NCBI RefSeq assembly: GCF_003755175.1
Contig: NZ_RKHX01000002.1
Span: 434,001-498,000, forward strand
Direction of reading: 5' to 3'
DNA length: 64,000 nt
DNA from: Cellulomonas sp. PhB150
GTDB lineage: Bacteria > Actinomycetota > Actinomycetes > Actinomycetales > Cellulomonadaceae
The notes below the pieces were generated by a model. It had not been told where the DNA came from and ran no database searches. It was given only the letters and a program-made list of their open reading frames with translations. Position 1 is the stretch's first letter. Every line of letters begins with the position of its first letter. The translations under genes were made by a program, and so were the position numbers. Of the stretch, positions 1-6,011 are shown piece by piece.

Positions 1-148
1 TCGTGACCAGGCGCTGGAGCGCACCGCCGCCCGGCGGCCGGACATGCTGCGCGTGCTGGACCCCGCGGTCCTCGACAGGGCGGACCTCGCGACGCTCGCG
101 GACCTCGGCTGGGCCGTCGAGGACGGGCGCCTCACGCAGGCTGATTAG
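1..148 (+). CDS. trmD: tRNA (guanine-N1)-methyltransferase TrmD, 3' end only
   Basis: The window opens inside a reading frame (second base onward) encoding about 48 residues and ending with TAG. The sequence, with [14 protein letters not shown] near its start, resembles the extreme C-terminal helical tail of actinobacterial TrmD, which methylates G37 of tRNAs that read CNN codons. The catalytic SPOUT knot lies upstream of the window, so identity rests on the tail plus position: rplS follows directly, as in the widely conserved rimM-trmD-rplS cluster. Recognition is from family memory of a short segment, so confidence is moderate. Confidence 0.7.
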
Positions 149-163
149 CAGCGCACGGGCCCG

Positions 164-359
164 CTGTGGCAGAATCGTGCGCTGGTGCGCGTACGGCTGC
201 GTCTCTGCCACAGGGGAGACGATCACGGCCACCCGGGACATGTTCTCCCGGACGCACCGGAACCAGACCACGGGGACGCCGTTCCTCGCCTGCTCGCGCG
301 GGCGGCCGGCTGCCCACGATGACGCTTCTGACCTGTGGCAGGGCGGGAGAGTGAACACC
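164..359 (+). promoter_or_regulatory. rplS 5' leader with complementary nonamers (candidate riboregulator)
   Basis: The 211 bases between trmD and rplS hold a -10-like CAGAAT at 170-175, which would start transcription near 182. CTGTGGCAG occurs at 164-172 and again at 333-341, and its exact reverse complement CTGCCACAG lies between them at 205-213. Bases 205-214 can pair with 332-341 over 10 bp, closing a roughly 140-nt RNA domain just before the Shine-Dalgarno GGGAGA (345-350). In read-through RNA from trmD, 205-213 could pair with 164-172 instead. L19 leader RNAs are known in Firmicutes; that this one regulates is inference. Confidence 0.45.
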
Positions 360-725
360 ATGCACACGCTCGACCAGGTCGACGCAGCGTCGCTGCGCTC
401 CGACATCCCGGACTTCCGTCCCGGCGACACGCTCAAGGTCAACGTCAAGGTCGTCGAGGGCAACCGCTCGCGGATCCAGGCGTTCCAGGGTGTCGTCATC
501 GCCCGTCAGGGCGAGGGCGTCCGCGAGACCTTCACGGTCCGCAAGGTCAGCTTCCAGGTCGGCGTCGAGCGCACGTTCCCCGTGCACTCCCCGAGCCTCG
601 AGTCCGTCGAGGTCGTGACGCGCGGTGACGTGCGCCGCGCGAAGCTGTACTACCTGCGCAAGCTCCGCGGCAAGAAGGCCAAGATCAAGGAGAAGCGCGA
701 CGCGGTCCCGGCCAAGAAGGCCTGA
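360..725 (+). CDS. rplS: 50S ribosomal protein L19
   Basis: Encodes a 121-residue bL19 protein of the large ribosomal subunit, located near the 30S-50S interface. The N-terminus [19 protein letters not shown], the [17 protein letters not shown] block and the basic tail [13 protein letters not shown] are typical of actinobacterial L19. I chose ATG at 360 because GGGAGA (345-350) stands 9 bases upstream; an in-frame GTG at 351 directly abuts that site and would be too close. It is preceded by a structured leader and followed by a strong hairpin, so it is probably a single-gene or trmD-coupled transcript. Confidence 0.97.
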
Positions 726-740
726 CCACGCAGCACTCCA

Positions 741-773
741 GACGGGCGGTCACCCTCGCGGTGGCCGCCCGTC
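741..773 (+). terminator. Hairpin terminator after rplS
   Basis: A 14-bp stem with one non-Watson-Crick (G/T-type) position pairs 741-754 (GACGGGCGGTCACC) with 760-773 around a 5-base loop, 15 bases after the rplS stop. There is no T run, as is usual in very high-G+C actinobacteria. It separates rplS from lepB and argues against lepB start codons upstream of 774. Confidence 0.75.
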
Positions 774-847
774 GGCGTACCCGGGCGCGGTCGTCTCGGA
801 GCGCGGCACTGTGCGCGCTGCACGGTTCGGCGTGCGAGAGTGTCCGG

Positions 848-1645
848 GTGATCGACCCCGCCGACGAAGCCGCCCCGCCGACCGCCACCGGAACGCCGAG
901 CACGGCGGCCGGCGACGACCACGTGGCACCCCGGCACGCAGCCGCTCCCGACCGGCGCGACAAGCGCCGGAGCACGGGTGCGTCGTTCCTGCGTGAGACG
1001 GTCATCATCCTGGTCAGCGCGCTCGTGCTCTCGCTCATCGTCAAGACCTTCCTGGTGCAGGCGTTCTTCATCCCCAGCGGGTCGATGAACGACACGCTCA
1101 TCGAGAACGACCGCATCCTCGTCAGCAAGCTGACGCCCGGCCCCTTCGACCTGCACCGCGGCGACGTCGTCGTGTTCAAGGACCCGAACCACTGGCTCGG
1201 CGACGAGGCCGAGGACACGCCGACCGGCCCGGTCGGCACCGTGGTCCGTGACGCGCTGACGTTCATCGGCCTCTACCCCGAGGACGCAGGCGAGCACCTC
1301 GTCAAGCGTCTGATCGGCCTGCCCGGGGACCACGTCGCGTCCGAGGGCGCGGGCAAGCCCGTCACGGTCAACGGCGTCGCGATCGACGAGCCCTACCTGG
1401 CGCCCGGTGCGCAGCCGAGCGAGTTCGCGTTCGACATCGTCGTGCCGCCCGACAGCATCTGGGTCATGGGCGACAACCGGCAGCACTCGGCCGACTCGCG
1501 CTGGCACCAGGGCGAGCCCGGCGGCGGCTCCGTGCCGATCGGCAACGTGGTGGGCGTGGCCTTCGTCATCGTCTGGCCCGCCGCCCACTGGGACATCCTG
1601 CGCAACCCGGGCGACACGTTCGCGGACGTGCCGCCCGCGTCGTGA
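848..1645 (+). CDS. lepB: Signal peptidase I
   Basis: Type I signal peptidase (265 aa), a membrane-anchored serine/lysine protease that removes signal peptides from Sec- and Tat-exported proteins on the outer face of the membrane. After an acidic, disordered N-terminus, one membrane segment spans about residues 51-70. The FFIPSGSM motif carries the nucleophile Ser79 and [12 protein letters not shown] carries the general base Lys153; [11 protein letters not shown] is the conserved box E. The start at GTG 848 is chosen for the GAGAG Shine-Dalgarno at 836-840 and because the frame upstream runs through the rplS terminator. Its stop overlaps the rnhB start (GTGA), implying coupling. Confidence 0.93.
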
Positions 1646-2388
1646 GCGTGACCAGCCCCGTCGCGGCGGTCGCCGTCCGGCCGGCCCGGGCGGCGCGGCC
1701 CGGGCCGCACCTGCGGCACGAGCGTGTCCTGCTGCGCACGGGGGCACGCCTGGTCGCGGGCATGGACGAGGTGGGCCGCGGCTCGCTCGCCGGCCCCGTG
1801 AGCGTGGGCGTGGTCGTCGTCGACGTCACGACGCGGTCGGCTCCGCGTGGCGTGGCCGACTCCAAGCTGCTCACGCCCCTGGCGCGCACCGCGCTGCTTC
1901 CGGCGCTGAGCCGATGGGGCACCGCGCGGGCCGTCGGGCACGCGAGCGCCGCCGAGATCGACGAGATCGGGATCATCGCTGCCCTGCGGCTCGCCGGGAC
2001 CCGCGCGCTGGCCACCGTCGCCGAGCGTGTCGGCCCGGTGGACGTGGTGCTGCTCGACGGCTCCCACGACTGGCTGACGCCTCCCGCGCAGGCGAGCCTG
2101 TTCGACGAGGCCGCCTCCGCGGACGGCCCGCGCGTCCACATGCGCGTCAAGGCCGACCGGACCTGCGCGAGCGTCGCCGCCGCAAGCGTGCTGGCCAAGT
2201 GCGAGCGCGACGCGATGATGGCGGCACTGGCACCCGAGCATCCCGCCTACCGGTGGGACGAGAACAAGGGCTACGCGTCGCCGGACCACCTTGCGGCTCT
2301 CGCGACGCTCGGGCCGAGCGTGCTGCACCGACGGTCGTGGCGGCTGCCCGGTGTGGGGGTCACCGACGAGTCCCCCGGTGGGGGATGA
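1642..2388 (+). CDS. rnhB: Ribonuclease HII
   Basis: RNase HII (248 aa), a cytoplasmic endonuclease that cuts RNA in RNA/DNA hybrids and removes single ribonucleotides misincorporated in [18 protein letters not shown] holds the catalytic Asp42-Glu43 pair of the DEDD metal site; further acidic residues lie in [10 protein letters not shown] and near KADRT/AKCERD. GTG at 1642 overlaps the lepB stop by four bases; GTG at 1648 is an alternative start. The lepB-rnhB-DUF2469-yraN-comM-dprA order is standard in actinobacteria and supports the call. Confidence 0.95.
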
Positions 2389-2395
2389 TGGGCGC

Positions 2396-2719
2396 GTGAG
2401 TGCCGAGGACCTGGAGAACTACGAGACCGACATGGAGCTCGCGCTCTACCGCGAGTACCGCGACGTCGTCGGCCTCTTCTCGTACGTGGTGGAGACCGAG
2501 CGCCGCTTCTACCTGGCGAACCAGGTGGACCTGCAGGTGCGGTCCGCCGCCGGTGAGGTCTACTTCGAGCTCACGCTCGCCGACGCCTGGGTGTGGGACG
2601 TGTACCGCTCGGCGCGGTTCGTGAAGTCGGTGCGCGTCGTGACGTTCAAGGACGTCAACGTCGAGGAGCTCGCGAAGGCCGAGCTCGACCTCGGCAGCGG
2701 CGCGGGCTTCCCGCGCTGA
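2396..2719 (+). CDS. DUF2469 domain-containing protein
   Basis: A 107-residue acidic protein of the DUF2469 family, nearly invariant across Actinobacteria and of unknown biochemical role. The MSAEDLENYETDMEL start, the YREYRDVVGLFSYVVETERR block and the VWDVYRSARFVKSVRVVTF block are the family's most conserved parts. GTG at 2396 lies 7 bases after the rnhB stop and follows a GGGGGATGATGGG purine stretch. There is no signal peptide or membrane segment, so it is probably cytoplasmic. Its constant place between rnhB and yraN is the only functional hint. Confidence 0.93.
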   Translation: MSAEDLENYETDMELALYREYRDVVGLFSYVVETERRFYLANQVDLQVRSAAGEVYFELTLADAWVWDVYRSARFVKSVRVVTFKDVNVEELAKAELDLGSGAGFPR

Positions 2720-2811
2720 TCGTCCCCTCGCGTCAGCGAGCCGACCACAGCCCCGCAGCTCGGCGCGGTCGTCCCCAGACCTGAGCACCGGCTCCTTCCC
2801 AGCCTGCCCGC

Positions 2812-3186
2812 ATGCGGCACGGTCAGGACATGCGAGCCAAGGATGCGGTCGGTCGGTACGGCGAGGACGTCGCCGCGCAGCACGTCCTGCAGGCGGGGTG
2901 GCAGGTCCTCGACCGCAACTGGCGGTGCCGCGACGGCGAGATCGACCTGGTCGGGCTCGACGGGGACGAGCTGGTCGTCGTCGAGGTCAAGACGCGGCGG
3001 TCGACGGCCTACGGGCATCCGGCGGAGGCGGTGACGCGGCTCAAGCTGGCTCGCGTGCGGCGGCTCGCGGCCGCCTGGCTCGCCGCGCACGACCAGCGGG
3101 TCGCGTCGGTGCGGGTCGACGTCATCGCGGTGCTGCTGCCGCCGCGCGGCGCGGCCGTCGTCGAGCACCTGGTCGGGGTGATCTGA
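2812..3186 (+). CDS. YraN family protein (UPF0102), endonuclease-fold
   Basis: A 124-residue member of the YraN/UPF0102 family, which has a restriction-endonuclease-like fold (Holliday-junction-resolvase type) but no firmly assigned role. The core reads GRYGEDVAAQHVLQAGWQVLDRNWRC, then DGEIDLV and VVVEVKTR, giving the acidic and lysine residues of a PD-(D/E)xK site (Asp of GEIDLV, Glu and Lys of VEVKTR). The start could be ATG 2812 or ATG 2830 (MRAKDAVGRYG), which matches family N-termini better; neither has an ideal Shine-Dalgarno. It directly abuts comM, suggesting one transcript. Confidence 0.9.
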   Translation: MRHGQDMRAKDAVGRYGEDVAAQHVLQAGWQVLDRNWRCRDGEIDLVGLDGDELVVVEVKTRRSTAYGHPAEAVTRLKLARVRRLAAAWLAAHDQRVASVRVDVIAVLLPPRGAAVVEHLVGVI

Positions 3187-4710
3187 GTGGTGCTGGGACG
3201 CACGCTCGCGGTCGCGCTCGTCGGGCTCACGGGCCACGTGGTCGAGGTGGAGGCACACCTGGCCCCGTCGCTGCCCGCGTTCACGCTCGTCGGGCTGCCC
3301 GACGCCTCGCTCGCCGAGGCTCGTGACCGCGTGCGCGCCGCCGTCACGTCCTCGGGGCTGTCGTGGCCGAACCGGCGGATCACGGTCAACCTGTCGCCGG
3401 CGACGCTCGCGAAGTCCGGCTCGTCCTTCGACTTGGCGATCGCTGTCGCGACGCTCGTCGGCGCCGAGGTGCTCGACGCTGCGGCCGCCGTCGGCGTCGT
3501 CCACATCGGCGAGCTGGGGCTGGACGGGCGTGTGCGGCCCGTGCGGGGCGTGCTCCCGGCGGTGGCGGCGGCCGTCGCCGCGGGGCACCCGCGGGTGGTC
3601 GTCCCGCACGCCAACGCGGCCGAGGCCGCCCTCGTGCCGGGTGCCCGCGTCGCCGGGGTCGGCTCGCTCGCCGAGGTGGCCGCCCGCTACGGCGCCGACG
3701 TGGACGTGCCCGAGCTCGCGGTGGCGACCCTGGAGGCGGTGCCTGCGCCGCCTCCGCGGGGCGTGCTCGACCTGGCTGACGTGGTGGGCCAGGGTGACGC
3801 GCGCGAGTGCCTCGAGGTGGCCGCCGCGGGCGGCCACCACCTGCTCATGGTCGGGCCGCCGGGGACGGGCAAGACGATGCTCGCCGCGCGGCTGCCCGGC
3901 CTGCTCCCCGACCTCGACGAGGCGGACGCGGTCGAGGTCACGGCGGTGCACTCGGTCGCCGGCACGTTCGACCCCGGCGGCGGCCTGCTCCGGCGGCCGC
4001 CGTTCGAGGACCCGCACCACACGGCCACGCCGGCGAGCGTGGTGGGCGGCGGCTCGGGCACGCCGCGACCGGGCGCGGCGTCGCGGGCGCACCGCGGGGT
4101 GCTGTTCCTGGACGAGGCACCGGAGTTCTCGACGGCCGTGCTGCAGACGCTGCGCCAGCCGCTCGAGCACGGCGAGCTCGTGCTGCACCGCGCGCAGGGC
4201 GCCGCGCGGTACCCGGCGCGCTTCCAGCTCGTGCTCGCGGCCAACCCGTGCCCGTGCGGCAAGGCGGTCGGCAAGGGCCTCGACTGCACGTGCCGCAGCG
4301 AGCAGCGGCGGCGGTACTTCGGCAAGCTGTCCGGCCCCCTGCTCGACCGGGTGGACCTGCAGGTCGAGCTCCAGCCGGCGCGGGCAGGGGGCGCCGAGGG
4401 GGAGTCGACGGCCGTCGTCGCCCGACGCGTGTCGGCGGCCCGGGCGGCGGCCCGCGACCGGCTCGCGGGCACGCCGTGGCGCACGGGTGCCGAGGCGCCG
4501 GGTGGGTGGCTGCGGGAGCGGCTCGGTGCGGACGCCTCCCTGCTCGGCGACCTGGACCGCGCGCTCGACCGCGGCACGCTCAGCATGCGCGGGGTCGATC
4601 GCGTGCTGAGGGTCGCCTGGACGCTGGCAGACCTCGAGGGCCGTCCGGCGCCCGGGCGTGCCGACGTCGGCCGCGCCCTGCTGCTGAGGACACGGGGGCA
4701 CGGGGCATGA
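3187..4710 (+). CDS. YifB/ComM-like Mg-chelatase-type AAA+ ATPase
   Basis: A 507-residue AAA+ ATPase of the YifB/ComM family. In naturally competent bacteria ComM is a hexameric helicase driving branch migration during integration of transformed DNA; the actinobacterial role is not established. An N-terminal LonB-like domain (to about residue 190) precedes the ATPase domain with Walker A GPPGTGKT at 223-230 and Walker B VLFLDE at 305-310. The motif NPCPCG followed by DCTC supplies four cysteines, perhaps a zinc site. GTG 3187 directly follows the yraN stop, and the end overlaps dprA (ATGA). Confidence 0.92.
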   Translation: MVLGRTLAVALVGLTGHVVEVEAHLAPSLPAFTLVGLPDASLAEARDRVRAAVTSSGLSWPNRRITVNLSPATLAKSGSSFDLAIAVATLVGAEVLDAAAAVGVVHIGELGLDGRVRPVRGVLPAVAAAVAAGHPRVVVPHANAAEAALVPGARVAGVGSLAEVAARYGADVDVPELAVATLEAVPAPPPRGVLDLADVVGQGDARECLEVAAAGGHHLLMVGPPGTGKTMLAARLPGLLPDLDEADAVEVTAVHSVAGTFDPGGGLLRRPPFEDPHHTATPASVVGGGSGTPRPGAASRAHRGVLFLDEAPEFSTAVLQTLRQPLEHGELVLHRAQGAARYPARFQLVLAANPCPCGKAVGKGLDCTCRSEQRRRYFGKLSGPLLDRVDLQVELQPARAGGAEGESTAVVARRVSAARAAARDRLAGTPWRTGAEAPGGWLRERLGADASLLGDLDRALDRGTLSMRGVDRVLRVAWTLADLEGRPAPGRADVGRALLLRTRGHGA

Positions 4711-6011
4711 CGGCCCATCGGGAGCCGGACCCGCCGCGGGACGCGCGTCGACTGAGAGGTGCAGTCCCCTCGCGCCGGCTGGATCAGGCGATGTCGGACG
4801 ACCGCGTGGCTCGCGCGGCCTGGAGCGCGCTCGCGGAACCGGGCGACCTCGTGGCCGGCGCCCTGGTGGCGACGCTCGGGGCCGTCGACGCACTCCGGCT
4901 GGTCGTCGCTGCGGCGGAGGTCGGGCTCGCCTTCGCGTGGGCCGACGTCGTGGGGGAGGGCGCGGTCGACCGTGAGCAGGCGGCCGGGGGGCCGGGTCCG
5001 GGTCCGGTCCTGGGTCTGGGCGGCGTCCGGTTGGCGCGCGCCGTCGAGCGGTGGTCGGTCCGCCTGGAGGACGTCGCGCCCGAGAGGGACCTGGGCGTGC
5101 TCGACGCGCAGGGTGGCTCGTTCGTGGTCCCCGACGACCCGGGATGGCCGACCGGGCTCGACGACCTCGGAGCCGGTGCGCCCTTCGGGCTCTGGGTGCG
5201 TGGCGAGCCCGACCTCGGTGTGCTCCTCGGGCGGTCGGTGGCGCTCGTGGGGTCGCGGGCGTCGACGACCTACGGGGAGCGGGTGGCGGTCGACCTCGCG
5301 GCGGGCGCGGTCGATGCACGTGCGTGCGTCGTCTCCGGCGGCGCGTACGGGATCGATGCCGCCGCCCACCGCGGCGCGCTGTCGCGCGGAGGCCGGACCG
5401 TGGTGCTGCTCGCGGGGGGCGTCGACCGGGCCTACCCCGCAGGGAACGCGCGGCTGTTCGAGGCGGCGGTCGGTCAGGGCGGCGCGCTCGTGGCCGAGGT
5501 GCCGCCGGGTAGCGTCCCGACCAAGGGCCGGTTCCTCCAGCGCAACCGTGTGATCGCGGCGGGCGCCCGGGCGACGGTCGTCGTCGAGGCGGCCTGGCGG
5601 TCGGGTGCGATGAGCACGGCCCACCACGCCGCACGGCTCCTGCGACCCGTCGGGGCGGTGCCCGGGCCCGTCACGTCGGTCGCCTCGGCGGGGTGCCACC
5701 GGCTGCTGCGGGAGGGGTCTGCCGTCTGCGTGACGGACGCCGCCGAGGTGATGGACCTCGCGGGGCTCGTCGGAGCGGACCTCGTGGCGGAGCCGGCCGA
5801 GCCGGTCGGGCCGTCGCGTCGGGCGGACGGGCTCGACCCCGGGGCGGTGCGCGTGCTCGACGCGCTCCCCGTCCGGGCGGGCGTCACCGTCGACCAGGTC
5901 GCGGCGCGGGCCGGGGTGACGGTGGGGGAGGCGCGGGCCGCACTCGGGTTGCTCGAGCTCGAGGCGCGGGCCGCACGGGACGGCGACCGGTGGAGGCTGG
6001 CTCCCGCATGA
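4707..6011 (+). CDS. dprA: DNA-processing protein DprA
   Basis: DprA (434 aa) binds incoming single-stranded DNA and loads RecA in transformation; most actinobacteria keep it without obvious competence machinery. The Rossmann-type domain contains VALVGSRASTTYG and SGGAYGIDAAAH, the family's DNA/nucleotide-binding motifs, followed by GRFLQRNRVIAA. A winged-helix-like domain ends the protein (about residues 370-434). ATG at 4707 overlaps the comM stop by four bases. The first 35 residues are variable and proline/arginine rich, so a start a little downstream (ATG in QAMSDDR) is possible. Confidence 0.93.
   Translation: MTAHREPDPPRDARRLRGAVPSRRLDQAMSDDRVARAAWSALAEPGDLVAGALVATLGAVDALRLVVAAAEVGLAFAWADVVGEGAVDREQAAGGPGPGPVLGLGGVRLARAVERWSVRLEDVAPERDLGVLDAQGGSFVVPDDPGWPTGLDDLGAGAPFGLWVRGEPDLGVLLGRSVALVGSRASTTYGERVAVDLAAGAVDARACVVSGGAYGIDAAAHRGALSRGGRTVVLLAGGVDRAYPAGNARLFEAAVGQGGALVAEVPPGSVPTKGRFLQRNRVIAAGARATVVVEAAWRSGAMSTAHHAARLLRPVGAVPGPVTSVASAGCHRLLREGSAVCVTDAAEVMDLAGLVGADLVAEPAEPVGPSRRADGLDPGAVRVLDALPVRAGVTVDQVAARAGVTVGEARAALGLLELEARAARDGDRWRLAPA

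What the first reader, a model, noticed from the sequence alone, without database searches (positions are those of the whole stretch)
164..359. rplS leader with mutually exclusive 9-10-bp helices ending at the ribosome site
CTGTGGCAG at 164-172 and 333-341 both complement CTGCCACAG at 205-213. Base 214 extends the distal pairing to 10 bp (205-214 with 332-341), whose 3' strand ends three bases before GGGAGA. Because the first copy overlaps the likely -10, only RNA from the upstream trmD promoter would contain all three and could switch. This would let L19 or transcript origin control rplS translation. Leaders that bind L19 are described in Firmicutes; an equivalent here would be new to me.
Basis: partly seen in the sequence, partly recalled or inferred. 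Interest (0 to 1): 0.5.

Follow-up and report, generated by a model that had tools for sequence, protein, structure and literature searches.

The report
Kissing-loop leader RNA before rplS
Just before the gene for ribosomal protein L19, many actinobacteria carry an RNA in which the loops of two hairpins pair with each other beside the ribosome-binding site; it is probably a control element that tunes L19 synthesis, and no such family was found in Rfam.

Summary
The distal pairing (205-214 with 332-341) is real and widely conserved, but comparison changes its shape. The anti strand is the loop of hairpin P1 (200-221), the RBS-proximal strand is the loop of hairpin P3 (323-345), and the two loops kiss through 8 pairs (207-214 with 332-339). 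In 94 clean homologues all 8 pairs are standard in 82, and the two pairs that vary often change together (0 of 1000 shuffles as good). P1 and P3 also covary; the outer two pairs of the proposed 10-bp helix do not. The promoter copy (164-172) shows no such covariation and looks like an extended -10, so the switch between mutually exclusive helices is not supported. A covariance model finds the leader once per genome in 89 of 197 genomes of the class; all 75 matches that could be checked lie at the rplS start. A phylum-wide sample of 198 added one doubtful match outside the class. No Rfam 15 family matches the leader. I read it as a new ribosomal-protein leader whose kissing complex beside the Shine-Dalgarno site controls rplS translation, most likely as L19 feedback. 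L19 binding and repression are inferred, not shown.

The parts
2..148 (+). 3' end of trmD (stop TAG 146-148), the gene upstream of the leader
   Evidence: read directly; Pfam PF01746 tRNA_m1G_MT E 2.2e-63 on L001:713-1645
165..175 (+).
   Evidence: a similar word lies typically 34-41 nt (in some 50 or more) upstream of the anti strand in most homologues; no covariation with the anti strand; pattern TGTGGCAGAMTNG occurs once in the whole genome, its control pattern also once. Promoter activity is inferred.
182..189 (+). P0, 5' arm (CUGGUGCG), near the inferred transcript start
   Evidence: MFE fold; best helix between the two flanks of P1 scores 18.04 on average over 94 rows against 16.7 +/- 0.29 with partners swapped between rows
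200..206 (+). P1 hairpin, 5' arm (pairs with 215-221)
   Evidence: pairs 3-7 each with 0 of 1000 shuffles as good; also A1 counts
207..214 (+). K, loop of P1: GCCACAGG, kissing strand 1
   Evidence: 82 of 94 rows have all 8 pairs with the P3 loop, 12 have one mismatch; pair 4 86/94 and pair 6 91/94, 0 of 1000 shuffles as good
215..221 (+). P1 hairpin, 3' arm
233..251 (+). extra hairpin between P1 and the P0 3' arm (arms 233-238 and 246-251); this middle part is variable among relatives
   Evidence: MFE fold only; middle length varies strongly among relatives
253..260 (+). P0, 3' arm (CGCACCGG)
323..329 (+). P3 hairpin, 5' arm (323-325 and 327-329, U326 bulged)
   Evidence: P3 pairs 1-3 and 5 with 0 of 1000 shuffles as good, pairs 4, 6 and 7 with 5, 28 and 2 (counted without the bulge); A1 counts
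330..339 (+). P3 loop GACCUGUGGC: GA (90 of 94 rows) plus the 8-nt kissing strand 332-339
340..345 (+). P3 hairpin, 3' arm; its last base is the first base of the SD motif
   Evidence: across 94 rows the loop ends 15-25 nt (median 20.5) before the start codon
345..350 (+). Shine-Dalgarno-like GGGAGA
   Evidence: read directly; a loosely defined SD-like word after the P3 loop in 90 of 94 rows, no control run
360..725 (+). rplS, ribosomal protein L19 (121 aa, P0001)
   Evidence: Pfam PF01245 Ribosomal_L19 E 5.6e-50

Best explanation
This is a structured 5' leader of the rplS mRNA, conserved in many lineages of the window's class (Actinomycetes, inferred from its named relatives). A promoter just after trmD (extended -10 at 167-175) starts a transcript near 182. 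The RNA folds into P0/P1 and, directly before the Shine-Dalgarno site, P3; the 8-nt loop of P1 pairs with the loop of P3 (kissing complex K). Shown here by comparison: P1, P3, K and, more weakly, P0. Inferred: the kissing complex sits within reach of an initiating 30S subunit, so stabilising it blocks ribosome loading and melting it permits translation. Excess free L19 most likely binds the compact kissing fold, or a part of it, and represses its own mRNA (autogenous feedback), which also uncouples L19 from the upstream genes of the operon.
For: Covariation in three helices on alignment A1, 41 rows: 87.6% of cells paired against 41-52% when slid; covariation score 0.375 against 0.156 +/- 0.012. 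In 94 clean rows from 100 chosen loci there are 23 different anti/sense combinations, among them GCCGCAGG/CCTGCGGC, GCCTCAGG/CCTGAGGC, GTCACAGG/CCTGTGAC, GCCACTGG/CCAGTGGC, GCCCCAGG/CCTGGGGC and GCCGCAGA/TCTGCGGC; outside that set GCCGCATA/TATGCGGC and GCTTCAGG/CCTGAAGC. A letter-blind search for the fold scores 165 of 253 real leaders above the 99th percentile of 480 simulated ones. One CM match per genome in 89 of 197 class genomes. 74 of the 74 matches whose rplS row was listed lie at the rplS start; a 75th, G228, is adjacent by comparison. No terminator-like site in 1-2000, which argues for control of translation. 13 of 33 fetched leaders without the fold have a trmD-rplS gap of only 51-112 nt. 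[quoted passage not shown] Precedents: the E. coli L20 long-range pseudoknot (PMC10931766, passage) and the mycobacterial rpsO pseudoknot, drawn as possible kissing loops in M. tuberculosis and needed for S15 feedback in M. smegmatis (PMC8470358, passages).
Against: No binding, probing or expression data exist here. The kissing strands vary as long as they pair, and no convincing mimic of an rRNA site was found; the word shared with 23S rRNA is not clearly above chance. The nested energy model cannot score the kiss. For the short transcript it puts P1 at 0.64 and the open distal helix at 0.34, and in the window the SD pairs with 325-329 at about 0.64, an alternative whose conservation was not tested. 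The leader's energy is not exceptional (z -1.36, 16 of 200 shuffles as low). P3 pairs 4, 6 and 7 are only weakly supported (5, 28 and 2 of 1000 shuffles as good). The 94 rows were aligned with a model that contains P1 and P3, which leans towards those helices (not towards K as pairs). L270 and L265 keep all 8 K pairs but fall below the letter-blind cut. 33 of 40 fetched CM-negative leaders lack the fold, so control by this RNA is not universal in the class. The tree of L19 is too weakly resolved for a formal test of independent double changes.
Confidence: 0.6

Rival explanations
1. The kissing fold is a protein-independent translation or stability element. It sets a fixed rate of rplS translation, or protects the mRNA from or exposes it to RNase J or RNase III, with no L19 feedback.
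For: All structural evidence is neutral on a ligand. In Streptomyces venezuelae the L19 transcript is listed among direct RNase J targets (fold change -9.3; PMC12096830, passage).
Against: One match per genome in 89 genomes, at rplS in all 75 that could be checked (and for one). Such gene specificity at the RBS is the usual mark of ribosomal-protein leaders; a generic stabiliser would be expected at other genes too.
Confidence: 0.25
2. One reading: three nonamers form two mutually exclusive helices, so that read-through RNA from trmD (which holds the promoter copy) is translated differently from RNA made by the internal promoter.
For: The promoter copy is complementary to the anti strand in the window and in many relatives; in one row (L091) all three strands have changed in step.
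Against: No covariation of the promoter copy with the anti strand over 91 rows, while the distal strand covaries with it. In L078 anti and distal strand changed together and the promoter copy did not. In the nested model the read-through transcript keeps the distal helix (0.93) over the proximal one (0.014).
Confidence: 0.04
3. The leader responds to something other than L19: another ribosomal protein or assembly factor, an antisense or small RNA that targets one loop, or temperature.
For: Loop-loop complexes are natural targets of antisense RNAs (recalled, from no call). No rRNA-like L19 site was recognised.
Against: No second match was seen in any of the 89 genomes. K letters change in concert within each leader, so a trans-acting RNA would need to change at the same time.
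Confidence: 0.1
4. Chance complementarity in GC-rich DNA.
For: 10-bp inverted pairs occur in 51 of 652 window tiles.
Against: Concerted changes in K, P1 and P3 across the class and the letter-blind search.
Confidence: 0.01

Closest known systems
E. coli bL20 control of rpmI-rplT: long-range pseudoknot plus a second hairpin (PMC10931766, passages; further details recalled)
   Same: A long-range pseudoknot in the mRNA of a ribosomal-protein gene; an internal promoter lies in the preceding gene; the ribosomal protein is thought to compete with the ribosome.
   Different: Another protein and gene; here both strands are hairpin loops (kissing), and protein binding is untested. Sequence or fold similarity was not compared by any search.
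L19 leader of Firmicutes, also found in Flavobacteria (Rfam L19_leader; PMC7247131, passage; the Rfam name is recalled)
   Same: Leader of the same gene, rplS.
   Different: No Rfam match inside the leader: the three matches at E up to 10 in window 1-5000 lie elsewhere and below their cut-offs, and nine homologous loci gave only one sub-threshold AS-traI match outside the leader. Different lineage.
Mycobacterial rpsO leader controlled by uS15 (PMC8470358, passages; PMC10931766, passages)
   Same: Actinobacterial ribosomal-protein leader with a pseudoknot upstream of the initiation site, drawn as possible kissing loops in M. tuberculosis; a precedent for feedback without the SD inside the pseudoknot.
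   Different: Another gene and protein; its pseudoknot was tested by mutation, ours only by comparison. Similarity of sequence or detailed fold was not examined.

Membership tests
[quoted passage not shown]
   74 of 74 CM matches with a listed rplS row lie at its start; 15 of 89 had no listed row, one of them (G228) adjacent. That the region is transcribed as a 5' UTR is inferred.
Ribosomal-protein leader (generic kind) | compensatory base changes that support the structure | tested here: met
   K pairs 4 and 6, P1 pairs 3-7 and P3 pairs 1-3 and 5 each with 0 of 1000 shuffles as good; K pairs 2 and 8 with 4 and 13, P3 pairs 4, 6, 7 with 5, 28, 2; K pairs 1, 3, 5, 7 show no informative variation
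Ribosomal-protein leader (generic kind) | direct binding by the encoded ribosomal protein | not testable with these tools
   no binding data; needs purified L19
Ribosomal-protein leader (generic kind) | repression of the mRNA by surplus of that protein | not testable with these tools
   needs reporter fusions
Firmicutes/Flavobacteria L19 leader (Rfam L19_leader) | match to the family's covariance model | tested here: not met
   cmscan of window 1-5000 at E<=10 and of nine homologous loci at E<=1: no L19 leader among the matches
Firmicutes/Flavobacteria L19 leader (Rfam L19_leader) | position upstream of rplS | tested here: met
L20-type long-range pseudoknot | pairing of an upstream loop with a segment at the RBS | tested here: met
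   K 207-214 with 332-339, five bases before GGGAGA; loop end 15-25 nt before the start codon in 94 rows
L20-type long-range pseudoknot | L20 as the ligand, rpmI-rplT as the genes | tested here: not met
   the gene is rplS
   pairs 6 and 8: 75/91 and 74/91, equal to shuffle means 75.4 and 74.5
Extended -10 promoter | TG one base before a hexamer with A at position 2 | tested here: met
   T in 86, G in 91 and A in 89 of 91 rows (derived from the letter counts; 3 of 94 rows had no acceptable site). The site was picked as the best match to TGTGGCAGAAT, so these counts lean towards it; the last T of the hexamer was not counted.

The most novel reading that the evidence does not exclude
A class-wide, so far undescribed L19 autoregulatory RNA in Actinomycetes whose sensor is a loop-loop kissing complex: L19 recognises or stabilises the 8-bp kiss between the P1 loop and the RBS-side P3 loop and thereby shuts the rplS ribosome site. 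This would supply the missing feedback for the rplS end of the rpsP-rimM-trmD-rplS operon.
Probability: 0.5. Interest if true: 0.75.

Novelty: new variant of a known kind. Interest (0 to 1): 0.63.

Why it matters
Ribosomal-protein leaders are textbook feedback devices, but a 2024 review calls the trmD operon a rare ribosomal-protein operon on whose regulation there is no information (PMC10931766, passage). A leader found in at least 89 of 197 sampled species of the class, a class that holds the main antibiotic producers (recalled), gives that gap a concrete, testable RNA. Its kissing-loop architecture matches no Rfam family and would add a new way in which a ribosomal-protein mRNA can close its ribosome site.

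Tried and rejected
Three-helix switch with the promoter copy: rejected for lack of covariation and by the nested model. Ten-bp open helix: reduced to an 8-bp kiss, because the outer letters pair inside P1 and P3 and not, in a correlated way, with each other. Known Rfam family: none in the leader. Transcription attenuation: no terminator-like site within 1-2000. Mimic of 23S rRNA: 48 of 94 P3 regions (related rows) share a word of 10 or more letters with the genome's own 23S rRNA, mostly TGACCTGTGG, but such words also arose in 44 of 800 comparisons with shuffled or reversed 23S; I do not use it. A formal count of independent double changes on an L19 tree: only 3 supported independent pairs, so no test was possible (the unsupported best tree needs 22 and 19 changes of pair state at K pairs 4 and 6).

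Rows dropped before counting: 7 of 101 rows of alignment A2. Four were second or misplaced matches (L023 minus strand, L274, L172, L012), two were the pieces into which the model split L029 (its K is perfect), and one was L047, with a 9-nt sense strand. L047, and also L066 (which was not among the 100 loci), read by eye, keep all 8 K pairs if one C is bulged. L264, L270 and L229 were given to but gave no match; L265 was not given to it. None of these is in the 94. For one search I chose 100 of 157 diverse leaders and left out most that one search had shown to lack the fold. Of 40 leaders fetched from CM-negative class genomes, 33 lack the fold; one of the 33, L233, has a weak match (E 4.8e-4).

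Full report
OBSERVATION. The leader lies between trmD (stop 146-148) and rplS (ATG 360); Pfam identifies RimM, TrmD and L19 in this order and a signal peptidase downstream. On its own the repeat is only mildly unusual: 29 of 1000 shuffles of 164-359 hold a 10-bp inverted pair and 5 of 1000 hold the triple; 51 of 652 window tiles hold such a pair. The decision therefore rests on relatives.

CONSERVATION. A DNA search with 150-365 gave a match in 25 of 39 relatives; not every one is the leader (that of G038 is on another contig than its rplS). L19 was then used to collect rplS upstream regions: 147 of 150 family genomes and 148 of 149 order genomes have the gene, and 80 named loci came from the genome collection. 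The first analysis covered 145 distinct leaders. Most show the same layout: an extended -10 (TGTGGCAGAAT or close), typically 34-41 nt later a hairpin whose loop is GCCACAGG or a variant, a middle part of very variable length, then ..GACCTGTGGC.. as the loop of a second hairpin, then the SD and the start codon. Two of the 145 (L103, L122) lack it. Named genera with the leader include Cellulomonas, Actinotalea, Isoptericola, Xylanimonas, Sanguibacter, Georgenia, Herbiconiux, Microbacterium, Agromyces, Microcella and Subtercola.

STRUCTURE. On MAFFT alignment A1 (41 diverse leaders) the structure P1 + K + P3 has 87.6% of 820 cells paired, against 41.0-51.8% when partners are slid by 1-3 columns. 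13 of 20 pairs have changes on both sides; the covariation score is 0.375 against 0.156 +/- 0.012 in shuffles, 0 of 500 as high. The kissing helix alone has 98.2% of cells paired. A covariance model R1 with P1 and P3 as pairs (K not modelled as pairs) was run over 100 chosen loci. It gave 101 rows, of which 94 passed simple checks; this alignment leans towards P1 and P3 by construction. In these rows K is fully standard (G-U allowed) in 82 of 94 and has one mismatch in 12. K pair 4 is paired in 86 and pair 6 in 91 of 94, with shuffle maxima of 79 and 82 in 1000 shuffles; pairs 2 and 8 each show one double change. P1 pairs 3-7 and P3 pairs 1-3 and 5 each beat all 1000 shuffles; P3 pairs 4, 6 and 7 do not (5, 28 and 2 shuffles as good). 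Those letters instead pair inside P1 (C205-G216, U206-G215) and P3 (U329-A340, C328-G341). The long-range contact is thus a kiss of two loops of 8 and 10 nt. The P3 loop begins with GA in 90 of 94.

MORE VARIANTS. Leaders from other families keep K with different letters: GCCGCAGA/TCTGCGGC (L247), GCCACTGG/CCAGTGGC (L261), GCTTCAGG/CCTGAAGC (L270), GCCCCAGG/CCTGGGGC (L273), GCCGCATA/TATGCGGC (L264, L265). Mismatches also occur: U-U or U-C at pair 4 in six of the 94 rows, and likewise in Agromyces, which is not among the 94. A search that ignores letters and asks only for P1, K and P3 in the right place scores 165 of 253 distinct leaders above the 99th percentile of 480 leaders simulated from 120 of them. 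The leaders are related, so this is not 165 independent cases; L265 and L270 fall below the cut, as do several leaders that the CM finds. A further helix P0 around P1 is supported: mean best-helix score 18.04 against 16.7 +/- 0.29 (largest of 60: 17.41) when partners are swapped between rows.

THE PROMOTER COPY. Its pairing with the anti strand does not covary (pairs 6 and 8: 75/91 and 74/91 against shuffle means of 75.4 and 74.5). It keeps TGTGGCA where anti and distal strand change together (L018 and L019, where a G-U pair would remain; L078, where it would not). One row (L091) changes all three strands. In the nested energy model of a read-through RNA the distal helix has probability 0.93 and the proximal one 0.014. 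The copy reads as an extended -10 element; that it is an active promoter is inferred.

DISTRIBUTION. R1 finds exactly one match in each of 89 of 197 genomes of the class (strict filters, so a lower bound). 74 of 74 with a listed rplS row lie at the rplS start; 15 rows were not listed, one of which (G228) is adjacent. Of 40 leaders fetched from CM-negative genomes, 6 have matches at E 2e-6 or better in a search of 50 loci and a seventh, L229, shows a K with one G-U pair though no model match. The other 33 show no such fold; in 13 of these the trmD-rplS gap is only 51-112 nt, probably too short for it. In a phylum-wide sample of 198, 11 match, 10 of them inside the class; the eleventh is weak (E 0.0045). 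How many of the 198 lie outside the class is not listed.

HOW IT MOST LIKELY WORKS. The P3 loop ends 15-25 nt (median 20.5) before the start codon, and a loosely defined SD-like word follows in 90 of 94 rows. The structure therefore lies where an initiating 30S must sit. No terminator-like site was found. The fold was seen only at rplS. The best explanation is translational control by stabilising or melting the kissing complex, with L19 as the most likely ligand. The structure is shown by comparison; the ligand, the direction of control and the promoter are inferred.

KNOWN OR NEW. No Rfam 15 family matches the leader. The one passage of PMC7247131 that names L19 speaks of Firmicutes and Flavobacteria. 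The one mention of rplS in PMC10931766 is the statement that there is no information on regulation of the trmD operon (passages). PMC2864571, PMC8040213 and PMC6429828 (term searches of the main text) contain no word beginning with L19 or rplS. Literature searches: in an open-access library only; subscription papers and all supplements were not seen, so an earlier description cannot be excluded. S. venezuelae L19 mRNA is listed as a direct RNase J target (PMC12096830, passage), which leaves room for a turnover mechanism.

VERDICT. Observation confirmed; interpretation partly supported: the distal helix is real but is a kissing-loop interaction, and the promoter-copy switch is not supported. 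I file it as a new variant of a known kind (ribosomal-protein leader), with its ligand unproved.

Noticed in passing
window 325-329 and 345-349: In the predicted short transcript the SD GGGAG pairs with CUUCU just upstream (probability about 0.64), an SD-hiding hairpin that competes with P3. Whether relatives keep it was not tested.
   Followed up: partly
L264 and L265 (family code f4): The kissing strands have become GCCGCATA/TATGCGGC, three of the eight pairs changed on both sides, in genomes of about 1.8 and 2.7 Mb.
   Followed up: partly
L047 and L066 (Cellulomonas-group leaders): Two close relatives have an extra C in the RBS-side kissing strand; all eight pairs can still form with one bulged base (read by eye).
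   Followed up: partly
own 23S rRNA, L280 near position 1741: The P3 loop word TGACCTGTGG also occurs in the genome's 23S rRNA; shared words this long are not clearly above chance.
   Followed up: yes
L200-L203, L205, L207, L208, L211-L213, L219, L237, L238: These 13 class genomes without the leader have a short trmD-rplS gap of 51-112 nt, as if leader and internal promoter were gained or lost together.
   Followed up: partly
L091: A leader in which the promoter copy, the anti strand and the distal strand have all changed in step; probably a coincidence with a TGTGACA -10, which L116 and L128 also have without matching changes.
   Followed up: no
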